A DNA stretch of 29,461 nt from a virus. Numbering within the stretch: position 1 is the stretch's first letter; each line of letters begins with the position of its first letter. The notes beneath the pieces are model-generated. The model was not told the DNA's origin, ran no database searches, and saw only the letters and a program-made list of their open reading frames with translations. The stretch spans positions 1-29,461 of IMG/VR virus record IMGVR_UViG_3300030419_002472; one strand, given 5' to 3'. Both the position numbers and the translations under genes were made by a program. This document shows, piece after piece, positions 477-16,160 of this stretch.

Positions 477-1274
477 ATGGCTTCCATCCCACCACAGAGA
501 TTAACAGTAGATAAAATTGTAAGTGACTTGTTAGAACCAGCAACTACCTCGTTTTATCAGGTTACAATTAAAGATCCAAAGCAATTAAATGAAAAAGGAG
601 ATTCTTTTTCAGATTATCTTGCTAAACAAGGTCTTTCTGTTTTGTTTTCGCCAGGTCTTGATGTATCGAGAAAAAATAAATTGCAACTGTTTTGCTCAGA
701 AGCAACACTTCCAGGCTCATCAATGGCAACAGCAAACTTAGATAATGATTTCACAGGAGTTTCAGAAAAGTATGCTCACCGTAGAGTATTTGATGAAGAG
801 ATTACACTGACGTTTTATTGTGATGCAAAAGAATACTTACCGATCAGATTTTTTGAAGCTTGGATGTCATATATGACAAATGATACAGATGATGGCCATT
901 TTGGTGAATTTCATTATAAGATGAAGTTCCCTGCCAAGTATAAAGGTGGTTTAGAAATAACTAAATTTGAAAAGAACTTGAACTCACAAGATCCAGTTAG
1001 AGGTAGAACAAGACCATTAACATATACTTTTATTGATGCATTCCCAAAATCAATCTCGGCAATGCCCGTTTCATATGATGCATCGGATTTATTAAGATGT
1101 TCAGTTTCATTTACTTATACAAGATATAGTGCAAAACCTGCTGCAAAGTCTTTAGATCAAACATTTGCATATTATGCTGGTCAATTTGCTAATATTGCTG
1201 TAGATAAATTAACTGGAGTAGATCTTCTTGGTGATGTTGTGGGAGGAGTTGTTCAGAGATCACTCTCTCAATAA
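477..1274 (+). CDS. Tail-tube-fold protein, probably gp54/gp48-like baseplate tube initiator
   Basis: This 265-residue protein has the look of the T4 gp19 tail-tube family. A CSEATLPGSS segment near residue 75 is followed by a β-rich stretch with the ExxLTFYCD pattern (about 108-117), a FFEAWMSYM helix (about 124-132), and a late FPKSISAMPVSYD segment (about 197-209) before alternating β residues (SVSFTYTRY). It is longer than gp19-type tube proteins. It also sits next to gp4 and the chaperone/tape-measure genes, which favours a baseplate tube-initiator role (gp54 or gp48) at the bottom of the tail tube. The start at 477 gives MASIPPQRL; an AAGG at 457-460 is a distant possible ribosome site. 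The tube-fold family is fairly secure; the exact T4 equivalent is not. Confidence 0.65.
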   Translation: MASIPPQRLTVDKIVSDLLEPATTSFYQVTIKDPKQLNEKGDSFSDYLAKQGLSVLFSPGLDVSRKNKLQLFCSEATLPGSSMATANLDNDFTGVSEKYAHRRVFDEEITLTFYCDAKEYLPIRFFEAWMSYMTNDTDDGHFGEFHYKMKFPAKYKGGLEITKFEKNLNSQDPVRGRTRPLTYTFIDAFPKSISAMPVSYDASDLLRCSVSFTYTRYSAKPAAKSLDQTFAYYAGQFANIAVDKLTGVDLLGDVVGGVVQRSLSQ

Positions 1275-1313: not shown

Positions 1314-2033
1314 ATGCCTTTACCAAAAATTGCGACACCAACGTATAGTATGGTGTTACCATCTACAGAAAAGGAAATAAACTATCGACCTTTTCTTGTG
1401 AAAGAAGAAAAACTTTTAGTTCTTGCTTTAGAAAGTGAAGATAATAAACAAATCACTACAGCTATCAAAGCAGTTCTTAAGAGTTGTGTTCTAACAAAAG
1501 GAATTAAAGTAGAATTATTACCTACATTTGATATTGAATTTTTATTCTTAAACATTCGTGGAAAGTCTGTTGGTGAATCAATAGATGTGAATGTAATTTG
1601 TCCTGATGATGAAAAGACCAGTGTTAAGGTGGTAATTGATTTGGATGATATCAAAGTTCAAAAAAATGAGAGTCATACAAACAAAGTTGAGTTGGATAAG
1701 AACTTAATAATGGAATTAAAGTATCCTTCTCTAGATGAGTTCATTAAAAATAACTTTGATTTCAAAGATGAGAGTGCAATGGAACAATCTTTTAGATTAA
1801 TTGCATCTTGTATTGATAAGATATACAATGAAGAAGAAGTATGGGTTGCAGCAGACTGTACAAAGAAGGAGATAACAGAGTTTCTTGAGTCGATGAACTC
1901 ATCTCAATTTAAAAAGATTGAAGAGTTCTTTACAACAATGCCTAAATTATCACATACTATAAAGGTAAAAAATCCAAATACAAAGGTCGAAAGTGAAGTT
2001 GTACTTGAGGGTTTAGCGTCTTTTTTCGGGTAG
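1314..2033 (+). CDS. 26: gp26-like baseplate hub subunit / tail assembly chaperone, zero-frame product
   Basis: The 239-residue protein matches the T4 gp26-type baseplate family (Pfam T4_baseplate): an N-terminal LPSTEKEINYRPFLVKEEK segment, then KAVLKSCV (about 49-56) and PTFDIEFLFLNIRGKSVGE (about 70-88). Position just upstream of the tape-measure genes, with a short extra frame behind it, is the layout of tail assembly chaperones, which coat the tape measure during tail assembly. The start at 1314 follows an AGGA ribosome site. The last codons contain a T TTT TTC slippery heptamer at 2021-2027, before the TAG at 2031, so a fraction of ribosomes should make a longer -1 product. Family confidence is high; the chaperone role is inferred from context. 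Confidence 0.8.
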   Translation: MPLPKIATPTYSMVLPSTEKEINYRPFLVKEEKLLVLALESEDNKQITTAIKAVLKSCVLTKGIKVELLPTFDIEFLFLNIRGKSVGESIDVNVICPDDEKTSVKVVIDLDDIKVQKNESHTNKVELDKNLIMELKYPSLDEFIKNNFDFKDESAMEQSFRLIASCIDKIYNEEEVWVAADCTKKEITEFLESMNSSQFKKIEEFFTTMPKLSHTIKVKNPNTKVESEVVLEGLASFFG

Positions 2034-2057
2034 CAATGATCCATATGGATCTTGCTA
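2021..2057 (+). promoter_or_regulatory. Programmed -1 ribosomal frameshift site with downstream hairpin
   Basis: The zero-frame codons TCT TTT TTC give the slippery heptamer T TTT TTC (2021-2027). Three bases later a stem-loop begins: TAGCAA (2031-2036) pairs with TTGCTA (2052-2057), one T is bulged (2037), GATCC (2038-2042) pairs with GGATC (2047-2051), and ATAT is the loop. A -1 slip would read CGG GTA GCA ATG ATC and enter the downstream 59-codon frame with no stop between. The spacer is shorter than the usual 5-9 bases, though partial melting of the stem would lengthen it. Confidence 0.75.
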
Positions 2058-2215
2058 GCTATTACAAGTTAAACTTTTCGTTGATGCAATACCATAAATA
2101 CTCATTAACTGAGATTGAAAACATGATGCCTTGGGAACGAGACATCTATGTTGGATTATTAAAACAACATCTCGAAGAAGAGGAACTTAAACGACAGCAA
2201 TCGAAGAATGCCTAA
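2036..2215 (+). CDS. Tail assembly chaperone C-terminal extension (-1 frame)
   Basis: A 59-codon frame follows the gp26-like gene and overlaps the next gene by 8 bases. It reads as a compact helical domain with YYKLNF, YHKYSLTEIENMMPWERDIY (about 19-38) and an acidic EEEE tail. The tyrosine-rich start, the S-L-x-E-I-x-x-M-P-W pattern and the small size resemble the frameshift extensions of tail chaperones such as P2 E' or lambda T. No convincing ribosome site precedes ATG 2036 or ATG 2045. The frame is exactly the one reached by a -1 slip at 2021-2027, so it is most likely made as a fusion of roughly 300 residues to the gp26-like protein. Separate expression is not excluded. Confidence 0.7.
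   Translation: MIHMDLASYYKLNFSLMQYHKYSLTEIENMMPWERDIYVGLLKQHLEEEELKRQQSKNA
2093..2100 (+). promoter_or_regulatory. Possible late promoter motif before the tape-measure genes
   Basis: CATAAATA fits the NATAAATA late motif and lies about 108 bases before the 2208 start. It is inside the chaperone extension frame, so it may be coincidental. Confidence 0.3.
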
Positions 2216-3818
2216 AACACCTGGTGCACTAGAAATATTAGAAGGTCTCGGATACGATCCAGTTGATATCGAATCCGATGCTGATTATATTCGTGCGTTA
2301 AAGGAATCATTTAATAAACTTCAGATACAAAATCCAAGTGATCCTAGATTAGAACCATTAGCAGATGCAGTAAAAGGATATAGACACGCAAAGAGTAAGA
2401 AAGAAGCAGCAAAGAGTGGTGGGGAATCAAGAGCAGCAAAGAGGAGGAAGGGTGAATCTTATGATGATGTAAAGGCAAAGATAGATGCGAAGGAGAAGAA
2501 GAAAAAAGATGCAATGAATTTCATATCACCAGGTTCTGCACCTCCTGCATTACCTCCAGCAGAGGCTGATGGTGATGGTGATATGTCTGGTGCACTTGCA
2601 AAGATATCTAGTGATGTAAATGTTATTAAAGGTATTGTTGAGGCTCAAAAGAAAATTGGTGAAGATCAAGCAGATGATACTAGAGAAGCAAGAGAGAAAA
2701 AGAAAAGAGGTATGGCAGAGAACCTTTTAGAGGGATCAAAAAAAGCGTTTGGAAAGGTTAAAAATGTAGCTGCAAAAATGATCAAACCAATGGAGGGTAT
2801 TTTTAGTAGAATATTTAAGTTTTTAACTTTGTTTCTACTTGGATCTGGTTTGATGAAACTTCTTGATTGGATGGGAAATCCTGCTAATAAAAAAAAGATA
2901 CAATCTATATTCAGATTTTTAGCAGATTGGTGGCCTGCTTTGGTTGCTCTCCTTTGGCCTCTTCTTGGTGGTATAGGTATGGTTGTGGCGGTGATCGCCC
3001 TAACAGTTGATTATCTTCCTAAGATAATTGATACTGTTAAAATGTTATTTGGATTTGGTAAACAAGTCGATAAAGAGATTGCAAAGAATGAAAAAGATTT
3101 AACGAAAGAAACTACTGTAAAACTTGATGACAAAACAGGGGAAGATCCACCTAGTCAAACAGTAACTGATGCAGAAACTAATGTAGATAAACCAAAAGAT
3201 ACACCAAAAGTTACAGAACCTCCTATGTATGCCAATAAGGGTGGTGAGGTTCCAGGCCAAGGAAATACAGATACAGTTCCTGCTATGCTAACACCTGGTG
3301 AATTTGTATTGACTAAGGAAGCAGTGAATCGAGTTGGTGCTGATACTTTATATGGAATAAATGCTGCTGCTGGTGGTGTTGGTAAATCTTCACAGAAGAA
3401 AAAATCTAAACCAGCGAAGAAATCCAAACCTAAAATGAAGACTTCAACAGTCGGAACTATGATGAATATGGGTGGATTGAATATGGGTGGTATGAGTAAT
3501 GATGTGCAGTATATGAGTTATGGTGGCCCTGTTCAACATATGTTCATGGGTGGTTTAGTTAAGAGAGTATCTGGTGTGATTGCTAAAACACCACAAGCTC
3601 GTCTTCTAAAATTTGCAAGAAATCAAATCAGGAAAACTGGAGTTGGAGCACCACTATCAAAGTTGGCATCTAAGTTTCCTAAGATGTCATTTACTTTCCC
3701 TCAAACACCGACTGGAGATGCTAGTGGAGGGGAGACTCAAGGCCCTGCAATACCATCATTTGATGTTCGTGCATCTGGAGGTATAGCAAAAGAACAGACA
3801 TTGGGGATAAGGAGATAA
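2208..3818 (+). CDS. Tape-measure-like tail protein 1
   Basis: The 536-residue protein begins with a small helical domain (1-60), followed by a highly charged Lys/Glu-rich region (about 60-200). Two hydrophobic segments follow (about 201-223, IFKFLTLFLLGSGL, and about 236-272). A GGEVPGQG...VPAMLTPGEFVLTKEAV motif (about 344-373) recurs in tape-measure and tail-hub proteins. A Met/Gly-rich stretch (about 417-455) ends the recognisable part. Position behind the chaperone frameshift pair is where a tape measure is expected, which is the role of gp29 in T4. The hydrophobic segments would suit membrane insertion on DNA ejection. It shares a central segment with the next gene. The exact division of labour with that gene is unknown. 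Confidence 0.6.
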   Translation: MPKTPGALEILEGLGYDPVDIESDADYIRALKESFNKLQIQNPSDPRLEPLADAVKGYRHAKSKKEAAKSGGESRAAKRRKGESYDDVKAKIDAKEKKKKDAMNFISPGSAPPALPPAEADGDGDMSGALAKISSDVNVIKGIVEAQKKIGEDQADDTREAREKKKRGMAENLLEGSKKAFGKVKNVAAKMIKPMEGIFSRIFKFLTLFLLGSGLMKLLDWMGNPANKKKIQSIFRFLADWWPALVALLWPLLGGIGMVVAVIALTVDYLPKIIDTVKMLFGFGKQVDKEIAKNEKDLTKETTVKLDDKTGEDPPSQTVTDAETNVDKPKDTPKVTEPPMYANKGGEVPGQGNTDTVPAMLTPGEFVLTKEAVNRVGADTLYGINAAAGGVGKSSQKKKSKPAKKSKPKMKTSTVGTMMNMGGLNMGGMSNDVQYMSYGGPVQHMFMGGLVKRVSGVIAKTPQARLLKFARNQIRKTGVGAPLSKLASKFPKMSFTFPQTPTGDASGGETQGPAIPSFDVRASGGIAKEQTLGIRR

Positions 3819-3821
3819 GAT

Positions 3822-5678
3822 ATGCCAGCACCAGCGATTGGAGCGTTACTAGGAGGTTCGGTGAAGGGAGCTGCTGTAGGAGCAGCAAAATCTTATGCTG
3901 TAGATAAAGCAAAGAGCTTTGTTAGTGGTAAGAAAAAAGGTGGTGCTTTAGTAAAGGCAGGTGGTCAGAAACCAACGGTAAATCCTTCTAATTTAATGGG
4001 TAGACAAGTTGGTGGAGATAAAGGGGGAGTAGATATTCCAGCATCAAGACAAACTATTAATGTAACTGCTATGGGATCTGATTCTCCTGTTGGATCAGGT
4101 GGTGGTAGTGGAGATGTAAAAATTGTACAAGATATTAGTGTTGCAGTCTCTGCAATTGCTGAGAGTATGAAGAGTGGTCTTGTATTAAAAGATAAACAAG
4201 AAGCCAAAAAAAGAAAAGCAAGAGAAAAAGATAAACGTGCTGCACAAGAAAAGGGTATAGAGGCTGGTAAACCAAAGAAAGAAGGTGGTGGTGGAGGAAT
4301 GAACTTTAAAGTTCCTGGTGTTGGTTTGTTATCTGGTATATTTGGTTTTATTAGTAAGTTTTTATTTGGTGCATTATTAATGAAACTAGTTGATCTTGCT
4401 CCAAAGCTTGCACCATTACTTAATAATATTGCTAATGGTATTAAATTCGTAGATAATTTTTTCGGTGTGTCTGCGGGTGTTAGTTCTTTATTAAATGGTT
4501 TAGCTTCTTTTATTGATTTTGGATATCAATTAGTTGATGGTGCGGAGAAAGTAATTGGACAAGTTTTTGGTGTAGAGGGTGCTGAAAAATTCAAAATCTT
4601 TATGGAGAACGTAAGGAATTTGATCAATGGATTTATACTATGGAAACTTATAGGTCAAAAAATATTTCAACAAGTTGTTAAAAATATAACAAATGCTTTT
4701 AAACTTGTTAGAGGTTTTGCAAGAAGAGCATTTGTTGGTTTGAAAAGATTAATGGGGCCTGGTGCAAGAAAAGGTATAAGAGGAATATTTAAAGCAGGAA
4801 GAGGATTGGCAACTAAAGGATTGTCGAAGGTTGGTGGATTTGCTGCGAAGATATTTGGTAAGGCAGCACCTTTGATTACACCAGGTTTCAAGGCAGCTAA
4901 ACCTTTTGCTTCTAAGTTCTTTAGTAAGATTCCAATCGTAGGGCCTCTTGTTGTTACTATTGTATCTCTTTTATCTGGAGAACCAGCAACTCAAGCAATA
5001 TTCAAGGGTTTAGGTGCTGCATTAGGTGGTGCATTAGGAACTCTCATACCTATTCCTGTCTTAGGAACACTAATTGGTGAAACAATTGGTGTGTTTGTTG
5101 GTGATTTACTTTATGAAGGAATGTTTGGTAAAGGATGGGGTGAAGCAGGGAAGAAATTAAAGGATACACTTGTGACTATCTTTAAGGGTGGTAAATTTGT
5201 ATTTGACTTTATGAAGAGTGGATTCGTTAATTTCATTAACAATTTTAAGAAAGAACATATGGTTAAATTACCTAAAATTCTTGGAGTTCAAGTTAAATTA
5301 CCAGGTATAGGAGATACAATACCTAATCTTCTTCAACTATATAATCCGCTTGCAATGGTTCCTCTTCTTGTTAAGTCATTCTTTGGTGGAGAAAAGGAAG
5401 GAGACAATATTAAAAAAGATAGCAGTAATGCAAAAGTTGATGATACTAAAAAAGATATGGTTCTTGATGATGTTCAAGGAGGTGGTAAGAAGAATGATGC
5501 TGTAGAAGTAGCAAAAGAAACAACCTACGAAGAAGATGCTGGTGCGGTTAAGTTTATTCCAGTTCCAGTTGTACAATCTACACCAGTTACAGTTAAGAAT
5601 GGTGGTGGTGGATCTGGTGGTGGAACAAATACAGTTCTGATAGATGATACTGAACTAGCCTTGTACGGAGGTAAATAA
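3822..5678 (+). CDS. Tape-measure-like tail protein 2
   Basis: The 618-residue protein follows the previous gene by 3 bases and has a strong ribosome site (GGAG at 3811-3814). It has a Gly/Ala/Lys-rich N-terminus, a charged coiled region (about 120-155), a hydrophobic segment GLLSGIFGFISKFLFGALL (about 167-186), and a long glycine/alanine-rich hydrophobic region (about 370-433). The tail is acidic and ends in a flexible GGGGSGGG linker and a short TVLIDDTELALYGGK C-terminus. The charged region plus the LMKLVDL-type segment match the preceding protein, indicating a tandem duplication. A tail-interior or tape-measure role is inferred from hydrophobicity, length and position. I do not recognise a T4 counterpart with certainty. 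Confidence 0.55.
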   Translation: MPAPAIGALLGGSVKGAAVGAAKSYAVDKAKSFVSGKKKGGALVKAGGQKPTVNPSNLMGRQVGGDKGGVDIPASRQTINVTAMGSDSPVGSGGGSGDVKIVQDISVAVSAIAESMKSGLVLKDKQEAKKRKAREKDKRAAQEKGIEAGKPKKEGGGGGMNFKVPGVGLLSGIFGFISKFLFGALLMKLVDLAPKLAPLLNNIANGIKFVDNFFGVSAGVSSLLNGLASFIDFGYQLVDGAEKVIGQVFGVEGAEKFKIFMENVRNLINGFILWKLIGQKIFQQVVKNITNAFKLVRGFARRAFVGLKRLMGPGARKGIRGIFKAGRGLATKGLSKVGGFAAKIFGKAAPLITPGFKAAKPFASKFFSKIPIVGPLVVTIVSLLSGEPATQAIFKGLGAALGGALGTLIPIPVLGTLIGETIGVFVGDLLYEGMFGKGWGEAGKKLKDTLVTIFKGGKFVFDFMKSGFVNFINNFKKEHMVKLPKILGVQVKLPGIGDTIPNLLQLYNPLAMVPLLVKSFFGGEKEGDNIKKDSSNAKVDDTKKDMVLDDVQGGGKKNDAVEVAKETTYEEDAGAVKFIPVPVVQSTPVTVKNGGGGSGGGTNTVLIDDTELALYGGK

Positions 5679-12490: not shown

Positions 12491-13090
12491 ATGTTATTGT
12501 CTCTTTTTCCTACTATTATCCATAGTCATAAAATAACTAATTTTGAAAATAGTCAAAAAAAGTTAATTGAGTTTATATACGATGAAAGGGAAAAAGATGA
12601 TATTGGTGTAAAAGCATCTAATAGTGGTGGATGGCATTCTAAGAGAAATTACCATGAGAAGCAAGATAACATTTTGTATCACATAGTAAAATCGGCAGTA
12701 AAAACACATTTTTCAGATAATGATGTTTTTAAGGAAAACCTTCAAATAGAAATTAGTGCTTTATGGGCAAATATAAATGGAAAGGGTGATTATAATGTTT
12801 CGCATATTCACCCAGACTCAGATATATCGGGTGTTTTGTGGATTCAGATCCCAGAAAATTCTGGTGTTATAGAATTTACTTCTCCTCACATGTATAATCA
12901 GTTTAGAGAGAGACAAATTTATAAAAAGAAAATAATAGATAATGCTGGAATTCATTCGGCTTGGTATTTAATACCCACTGAGGGAAATGTTATATTCTTC
13001 CCTTCTTCTCTTTTTCATGAGGTTGATACTAATAATTCGGAAAAAGATAGAATATCCGTTTCCTTTAATTTAAATATTATAAATACCTAA
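12491..13090 (+). CDS. 2OG-Fe(II) oxygenase superfamily protein (1 of 6), TIGR02466-like
   Basis: The 199-residue protein follows the putative 2-oxoglutarate/Fe(II) dioxygenase pattern of the TIGR02466 group. His105-Ile-His107-Pro-Asp109 (SHIHPDS) lies at the start of the jellyroll, with SGVLWIQIP after it, and FHEV (His176) and Arg187 (DRISVSFNL) near the end. These enzymes normally use 2-oxoglutarate and O2 to hydroxylate a substrate. The metal triad here is either His105/His107 or His107/Asp109 plus His176; I cannot decide. The gene sits just after the terminator and ends 18 bases before a tail-fibre gene. The ATG at 12491 has no clear ribosome site. The superfamily is well supported; the substrate is unknown. 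Confidence 0.75.
   Translation: MLLSLFPTIIHSHKITNFENSQKKLIEFIYDEREKDDIGVKASNSGGWHSKRNYHEKQDNILYHIVKSAVKTHFSDNDVFKENLQIEISALWANINGKGDYNVSHIHPDSDISGVLWIQIPENSGVIEFTSPHMYNQFRERQIYKKKIIDNAGIHSAWYLIPTEGNVIFFPSSLFHEVDTNNSEKDRISVSFNLNIINT
13078..13085 (+). promoter_or_regulatory. T4-type late promoter motif TATAAATA
   Basis: An exact TATAAATA lies 23 bases before ATG 13109, a spacing typical for a late-gene leader. It overlaps the end of the oxygenase gene. Confidence 0.65.
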
Positions 13091-15656: not shown

Positions 15657-16160
15657 ATGCAAATATATGATGATTTCCTTCCTCAAGATGAGTGTCAATT
15701 GTTGAAGGAACAAATTTGTTTTAATAAAAATTTTCCATTTTATCTTCATAATTACGTTGCTCTTTGTGATGAAGAGACATCATTATGGAATTGGTATGGA
15801 ACACATGTTTTTTACGAAGATGGTAATATTAATAGTCAATATTTTGAATTTGTGAATGAGATTTTTATTCCTAAATTTATTGAGATGGGAATTTTTAAAT
15901 CTCTTATAAGAATAAAAGCTAATTTTTATTCCAATACAGACTCTATGAAGGAGCACGGATCTCATCGGGATTATCATTATTCTCATAATGCAGCAGTTTA
16001 CTCTTTAAATACTTGTGATGGGTTTACACGCTTAGAAAGTGGTGATATAATTAATAGTGTAGAGAATAGATTGGTTATTTTTGATGGAGATCAAATTCAT
16101 AATTCTAGCACTACCACTGATCAACCTGTAAGATTTAATCTTAATTTTAATTTTAATTGA
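15657..16160 (+). CDS. 2OG-Fe(II) oxygenase superfamily protein (2 of 6)
   Basis: The 167-residue protein opens with IYDDFLP, common at the start of 2OG oxygenases. It shows a classical HxD pair, His103-Arg-Asp105 (GSHRDYH), a distal His148 (DQIHNS), and Arg159 (PVRFNLNFNFN) for 2-oxoglutarate. Length is near the minimum for a full jellyroll. It starts two bases after the previous stop and is followed immediately by another oxygenase. Substrate is unknown. Confidence 0.75.
   Translation: MQIYDDFLPQDECQLLKEQICFNKNFPFYLHNYVALCDEETSLWNWYGTHVFYEDGNINSQYFEFVNEIFIPKFIEMGIFKSLIRIKANFYSNTDSMKEHGSHRDYHYSHNAAVYSLNTCDGFTRLESGDIINSVENRLVIFDGDQIHNSSTTTDQPVRFNLNFNFN

What the first reader, a model, noticed from the sequence alone, without database searches (positions are those of the whole stretch)
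1314..2215. gp26-like gene with a programmed -1 frameshift into a short extension, before the tape measure
The sequence shows a T TTT TTC slippery heptamer at 2021-2027 in the correct codon phase, a stem-loop three bases downstream that contains the zero-frame stop, and a 59-codon frame in exactly the -1 register without a good ribosome site of its own. Chaperone frameshift pairs (lambda G/GT, P2 E/E') sit just before the tape measure, as here. If right, the T4 gp26-type protein of these phages is a tail assembly chaperone with a frameshifted long form, and the small extension gene is routinely missed by gene finders.
Basis: partly seen in the sequence, partly recalled or inferred. Interest (0 to 1): 0.75.

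Follow-up and report, generated by a model that had tools for sequence, protein, structure and literature searches.

The report
Frameshifted tail-assembly chaperone in cyanophage
This virus of marine cyanobacteria almost certainly makes a second, longer version of a tail-building chaperone by having ribosomes slip back one base near the end of the gene; this is a well-known trick of long-tailed phages, and it explains why a neighbouring 'gene 51' in these viruses looks mysteriously short.

Summary
Gene 26 (1314-2033) ends with an in-phase slippery T TTT TTC (2021-2027), then a strong hairpin (-16.9 kcal/mol, z -4.1) containing the stop. The -1 frame (2027-2215) encodes a conserved 62-residue extension. 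In 287 of 292 related loci a T TTT TTN heptamer keeps this phase. In a 133-sequence non-redundant set the preceding codon always ends in T although its amino acid varies. Predicted structure peaks exactly after the heptamer, stems covary, and an SD-like GAGGG lies 8-10 nt upstream. In 48 of 133 relatives the extension has no start codon before its conserved domain, so independent initiation is excluded there. The extension is annotated 'gp51' in many cyanophages; T4 gp51 is an in-frame fusion of the same two parts. The gp26 model's best PDB matches are tail-assembly-chaperone folds (HK97 gp13, Z 7.8; suggestive only). Most likely it is a short/long tail-assembly-chaperone pair made by -1 frameshifting. 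Such pairs are a known kind, and Vladimirov et al. 2022 (not held, known through citing papers) identified these chaperones in T4-like phages. Added here: broad evidence, and an answer to the 'truncated' or 'missing' gp51 puzzle. Frameshifting itself is not measured.

The parts
1314..2033 (+). Short form: gp26 (PF12322 T4_baseplate), 239 aa, zero frame; putative tail assembly chaperone TAC-N
   Evidence: Pfam PF12322 E 9.5e-75; phrog_150 E 2e-79; hhalign to T4 gp26 E 2e-14; AF2 pLDDT 88, best PDB match HK97 tail assembly chaperone
2005..2011 (+). SD-like TGAGGGT (GAGGG core) in the Leu-Glu-Gly codons, about 9-10 nt upstream of the heptamer; putative upstream frameshift stimulator
   Evidence: at least 4-nt anti-SD match 8-11 nt upstream in 95.5% of 133 nr loci against 33% at other in-phase positions; Glu codon GAG 86 of 114 here, GAA preferred at most other Glu columns
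2021..2027 (+). Slippery heptamer T TTT TTC
   Evidence: 287 of 292 loci have in-phase T TTT TTN; F237 TTT 133/133, F238 TTC 110/111; preceding codon ends in T 133/133 with 6 different amino acids
2028..2060 (+). Downstream RNA hairpin containing the zero-frame stop (2031-2033); putative frameshift stimulator
   Evidence: MFE -16.9, z -4.14; positional MFE minimum exactly here across 133 loci; 37 two-sided compensatory cells against 20.7 +/- 4.2 in shuffles
2027..2215 (+). -1 frame extension, 62 residues RVAMIHMDL...SKNA plus stop; long form is 238 + 62 = 300 aa; the ATG-initiated part 2036-2215 is what is annotated as gp51 in relatives
   Evidence: phrog_634 E 3.5e-28, phrog_150 tail end E 1.3e-5; alignment A5 with 8 invariant columns; T4 gp51 residues 207-245 align, E 6e-5
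477..1274 (+). Upstream neighbour: tail tube family protein
   Evidence: Phage_TTP_2 E 2.8e-20; phrog_45 tail tube E 3e-37
2208..3818 (+). Downstream neighbour, overlaps the extension by 8 nt: putative tape measure protein (weak)
   Evidence: weak PHROG tape-measure matches E 5e-7 to 1e-5

Best explanation
Gene 26 encodes a tail assembly chaperone made in two forms. Most ribosomes stop at the TAG at 2031 and give the 239-aa short form. A minority, paused on T TTT TTC by the hairpin just ahead and probably pushed by the SD-like GAGGG behind, slip back one base (tRNA-Phe re-pairs on TTT TTT), miss the stop and add 62 residues, giving a 300-aa long form (...LASFF-RVAMIHMDL...). By analogy with lambda gpG/gpGT the common N part would coat the tape measure and the minor C part would recruit tail tube subunits. 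Shown here: the signals, their conservation, the absence of alternative starts in many relatives, homology to T4 gp26 and to T4 gp51, and the gene order. Inferred: actual frameshifting and its rate, and the chaperone function.
For: Heptamer phase and -1 frame conserved in 287 of 292 loci. Selection on the slip site itself: third base of codon 236 is T in 133/133 while the amino acid varies; TTC favoured at codon 238 while TTT is favoured at most other Phe columns; one clade changes F238 to Leu but becomes T TTT TTA, still slippery. No start codon before the conserved domain in 48 of 133. Mean 40-nt MFE is lowest (-9.25, positional mean -4.1) exactly after the heptamer, with compensatory stem changes in three clades. 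SD-like element 8-10 nt upstream. T4 gp26 and gp51 are both PF12322 and the C-terminus of gp51 matches the extension. Best PDB folds are HK97 gp13, 3fgx and YqbN. Aeh1, reported to lack gp51 (PMC3037559), has it in the -1 frame after T TTT TTC.
Against: No protein-level or reporter evidence. In the window's own clade an ATG (2036) lies 3 codons after the slip, so additional independent initiation cannot be excluded for this phage. Freshwater and Straboviridae relatives lack a strong hairpin. Five loci lack T6; one is a truncated gene, four form a clade with weaker sites. Fold match Z is below 8 and covers only residues 1-90. Tape-measure identity of the next gene is weak.
Confidence: 0.9

Rival explanations
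1. Two separate genes: the extension (annotated gp51) is translated independently, from ATG 2036 or 2045, by reinitiation after the gp26 stop.
For: Annotators call it a gene; ATG 3 codons after the slip in 106 of 287 loci with the heptamer; TAATG/TGATG stop-start overlaps in some distant relatives.
Against: 48 of 133 nr relatives, in several clades, have no ATG/GTG/TTG before codon 14, yet residues from the slip site onward (R-[IVL]-...) are conserved. The start position is not conserved while the heptamer is. Independent initiation would not need an invariant in-phase heptamer or a fixed T before TTT TTC.
Confidence: 0.05
2. Transcriptional slippage on the T6 run makes mRNAs with one base fewer or more, so the fusion is read from altered mRNA rather than by ribosome slippage.
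For: A T6 run (T7 in the Sinorhizobium phages) is the invariant feature.
Against: The run is only six in nearly all loci, whereas known slippage usually needs about nine (from knowledge); a hairpin downstream and an SD-like element upstream are ribosomal stimulators.
Confidence: 0.04
3. Neutral relic: the -1 frame is left from an ancestral in-frame fusion split by a frameshift mutation, and the short gp26 alone suffices.
For: T4 gp51 is an in-frame fusion of the same parts.
Against: The extension is under strong constraint and stays open in hundreds of loci; slip-site codons are constrained beyond the protein.
Confidence: 0.01

Closest known systems
Lambda gpG / gpGT (and P2 E/E', HK97 gp13/gp14) tail assembly chaperone -1 frameshift pairs
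   Same: Short form plus minor -1 frameshifted long form, slippery site near the 3' end, gene between tail tube and tape measure; N-terminal fold resembles HK97 gp13
   Different: Longer N part (239 aa) with an extra C-terminal domain; T TTT TTC instead of lambda's G GGA AAG (from knowledge); strong downstream hairpin in marine clades
T4 gp26 and gp51 (PF12322); [quoted passage not shown]
   Same: Same family: T4 gp26 corresponds to the short form, T4 gp51 to the long form with the C-terminal extension domain
   Different: T4 encodes the two forms as separate genes without frameshifting; here one gene plus a -1 frame
Pakpunavirus Adele / Vandenendeviridae TAC locus (PMC12846349)
   Same: Poly-T -1 frameshift at the end of TAC-N, extension previously annotated as a separate hypothetical gene
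   Different: Motif GTTTTT, different phage families; homology to this locus not tested here

Membership tests
Programmed -1 ribosomal frameshift site | X XXY YYZ heptamer in zero-frame phase just before the stop, -1 frame open across it | tested here: met
   T TTT TTC at 2021-2027; conserved in 287 of 292 loci
Programmed -1 ribosomal frameshift site | Stimulatory RNA structure a few nt downstream | tested here: met
   z -4.1 hairpin; covariation; absent in some distant clades
Programmed -1 ribosomal frameshift site | Measured fusion product | not testable with these tools
   needs mass spectrometry or reporter assay
Tail assembly chaperone pair (lambda G/GT kind) | Located between tail tube and tape measure genes | tested here: met
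   Tail tube family upstream; downstream gene has weak tape-measure matches only
Tail assembly chaperone pair (lambda G/GT kind) | Short and long form sharing an N part | tested here: met
   At the sequence level: -1 extension without own start in 48 of 133 relatives; in-frame fusion in T4 gp51
Tail assembly chaperone pair (lambda G/GT kind) | TAC fold of the N part | tested here: inconclusive
   Top rows 2ob9 (HK97 TAC) Z 7.8 rmsd 4.0 over 84, 3fgx Z 7.6, 3klu YqbN Z 7.2, next row 4.9; Foldseek E 0.65. Favourable but below the tool's caution level of 8
Tail assembly chaperone pair (lambda G/GT kind) | Binds tape measure / tail tube and is absent from the virion | not testable with these tools
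   needs biochemistry and virion proteomics
PF12322 T4_baseplate (T4 gp26/gp51 family) | Match above gathering score | tested here: met
   251.5 bits, cutoff 24.5
T4 gp51 baseplate hub assembly catalyst (the small ORF taken alone) | Full-length gp51 including about 200 N-terminal residues | tested here: not met
   The small ORF matches only T4 gp51 residues 207-245; the rest is supplied by the gp26 frame

The most novel reading that the evidence does not exclude
Across most T4-like phages outside the T4 group there is no free-standing gp51 at all: the 'baseplate hub assembly catalyst' is the frameshifted long form of gp26. The frameshift arrangement is ancestral, and T4's two genes are a later duplication with in-frame fusion. 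The heptamer is nearly invariant while the RNA stimulators were re-invented clade by clade.
Probability: 0.55. Interest if true: 0.5.

Novelty: new member of a known kind. Interest (0 to 1): 0.42.

Why it matters
It explains an old oddity: the 2010 comparison of T4-like genomes noted that cyanophage gp51 is only about 20% of normal length, missing some 200 N-terminal residues, and absent in Aeh1 (PMC3037559). The missing part is supplied by gp26 through frameshifting, and Aeh1 has the extension hidden in the -1 frame. It affects hundreds of annotated cyanophage genomes, where gp26 and gp51 should be one joined feature, and lets tail-assembly models be carried over to abundant ocean phages.

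Tried and rejected
Sequence search of solved structures with gp26 and with the extension found no credible homologue. The extension model alone gave no informative PDB match. NCBIfam had no model. A viral-contig scan with Vibrio D525 gp26 found nothing. The tree of PF12322 proteins recovers T4 gp26, T4 gp51 and the weak-site group each as one group, but the root and the order of deep branches are unresolved, so the duplication scenario is not proven. A single conserved hairpin for all clades was considered and rejected: stems differ between clades and are missing in some. Rarity of the bare heptamer as evidence was rejected. The Virology 2022 paper could not be read; what is said about it comes from its title and papers citing it.

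Full report
WHAT IS IN THE SEQUENCE. The window carries, on the + strand, a tail tube family gene (477-1274), a 239-codon gp26 (1314-2033), a small ORF (ATG 2036, stop 2213-2215) and a 536-codon gene starting at 2208. gp26 matches PF12322 T4_baseplate (E 9.5e-75). The small ORF matches PHROG 634 'baseplate hub assembly catalyst' and also the tail end of PHROG 150 'baseplate hub', so some database members appear to contain both parts. The last codons of gp26 are GCG TCT TTT TTC GGG TAG: T TTT TTC is in the right phase for tandem slippage, and the small ORF is in the -1 frame, open from about 2009. A slip at the heptamer gives a 238 + 62 = 300 residue protein with the junction LASFF-RVAMIHMDL.

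IS IT MORE THAN CHANCE. The heptamer alone is not unusual in this AT-rich window, and an in-phase T TTT TTN in the last 11 codons occurs in 1.5% of codon shuffles of gp26. Conservation is decisive. Among 292 loci with a complete gp26 end (IMG/VR contigs and annotated phages), T TTT TTC occurs in 258, T TTT TTA in 26, T TTT TTT in 2 and T TTT TTG in 1; 5 have no T6. The search patterns used to fetch loci lay upstream of the site, so this is not selection by the query. In a set of 133 sequences below 85% identity (built from loci with the heptamer), the codon before TTT TTC ends in T in all 133 while encoding Ser, Asn, Asp, Ala, Gly or His. Elsewhere in the gene those residues (Gly not computed) use a third-base T in 37-82% of cases. 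Phe237 is TTT in 133 of 133 and Phe238 is TTC in 110 of 111, although TTT is favoured at most other Phe columns. One clade has replaced Phe238 by Leu yet reads T TTT TTA: the protein changed but the slipperiness did not.

NO INDEPENDENT START IN MANY RELATIVES. In 48 of the 133, spread over several clades, the -1 frame has no ATG, GTG or TTG before codon 14 of the extension. In most of these the first is codon 18-19, inside the conserved LxxYYxxNFxLMxxHKYSL block. These extensions can hardly be made except as a fusion. Residues directly after the slip (R-[IVL]-...) are conserved although they precede any start codon. The window's own clade does have an ATG three codons after the slip, so additional independent initiation cannot be excluded for this phage.

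STIMULATORS. The window hairpin at 2028-2060 has MFE -16.9 kcal/mol, z -4.1, 0 of 200 shuffles as low. Averaged over 133 loci, the lowest 40-nt folding energy over 450 nt falls exactly at the base after the heptamer (-9.25, mean of positions -4.1). The stems are different helices in different clades, and each shows more two-sided compensatory changes than shuffled controls (20 against 6.9; 15 against 4.6; 37 against 20.7). Relatedness inflates such counts, so this is supportive rather than proof. Freshwater and Straboviridae relatives lack a strong stem. An SD-like GAGGG/GGAGG lies 8-10 nt upstream in 95.5% of loci against 33% at other in-phase positions; part of this comes from a conserved Leu-Glu-Gly, but the Glu codon is GAG in 86 of 114 there, whereas GAA is preferred at most other Glu columns. 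Upstream SD elements at this distance stimulate -1 frameshifting in E. coli dnaX (from knowledge).

WHAT THE PROTEINS ARE. T4 gp26 and T4 gp51 are both PF12322 (E 9e-64 and 4e-52). The cyanophage profile aligns to T4 gp26 almost end to end (E 2e-14), and the extension profile aligns to T4 gp51 residues 207-245 (E 6e-5). T4 gp51 is therefore gp26-like plus extension in one frame, and T4 gp26 is the short form. Structure prediction of gp26 is confident (pLDDT 88). Its best PDB matches are the HK97 tail assembly chaperone 2ob9 (Z 7.8, residues 1-86), 3fgx (Z 7.6) and YqbN 3klu (Z 7.2), with the next row at 4.9. The Foldseek E-value is weak (0.65), so this is favourable but not conclusive. The extension model is helical with no informative PDB match. 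The next gene has only weak tape-measure matches.

RELATION TO WHAT IS KNOWN. -1 frameshifting of tail assembly chaperone genes is widely conserved in long-tailed phages; the 2016 review excepts T4 (PMC5009743). [quoted passage not shown] The paper is not held here, but PMC10885494 reports from it that some T4-like phages carry separate short and fused long genes instead of frameshifting, and PMC12846349 cites it for poly-T frameshift signals in T4-like TAC-N genes. The concept is therefore known and this locus is a member of it. The 2010 comparison of T4-like genomes remarked that cyanophage and marine vibriophage gp51 lack about 200 N-terminal residues, and that gp51 is missing in Aeh1 (PMC3037559). 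Aeh1 in fact has T TTT TTC followed by the extension in the -1 frame with no start codon until +50.

EXCEPTIONS. Ackermannviridae (GOT, 3M), Vibrio D531 and Pseudomonas Cygsa01 keep the -1 extension but have N NTT TTC instead (A ATT TTC, G GTT TTC, A CTT TTC, C ATT TTC), and form one group on the tree. GOT and 3M have no start codon until 32-35 nt after the stop, so a weaker single-tRNA type of slip is likely there.

VERDICT. Observation confirmed; interpretation supported with corrections (the extension is usually annotated as gp51; T4 itself does not frameshift here; prior art exists). The remaining gap is experimental proof of the fusion and of its function.

Noticed in passing
L085, L088, L090, L132 (gp26 ends): A clade of T4-like phages (Ackermannviridae, Vibrio D531, Pseudomonas Cygsa01) keeps the -1 extension but with N NTT TTC instead of T TTT TTC; 3M has G GTT TTC, the heptamer I recall from T7 gene 10. 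GOT and 3M have no start codon near the stop.
   Followed up: partly
L300:1201-2150 (Aeromonas phage Aeh1): Aeh1, described in 2010 as lacking gp51, has the gp51 extension unannotated in the -1 frame after T TTT TTC.
   Followed up: yes
L265-L298: A marine clade uses mostly T TTT TTA, with a short covarying hairpin (GGCUCUC-NNNN-GAGAGCC) in many members.
   Followed up: partly
L190 (gp26 region): The gp26 reading frame ends early in this contig and the heptamer was not found downstream; possibly an assembly error or a disrupted gene.
   Followed up: no
window 12491-13090 and 15657-16160: 2OG-Fe(II) oxygenase gene and a DNA endonuclease V match within the tail gene region.
   Followed up: no
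window 3822-5678: Second large glycine/lysine-rich protein after the putative tape measure, partly similar to it (both hit phrog_35029); possibly a split or duplicated tape measure.
   Followed up: no
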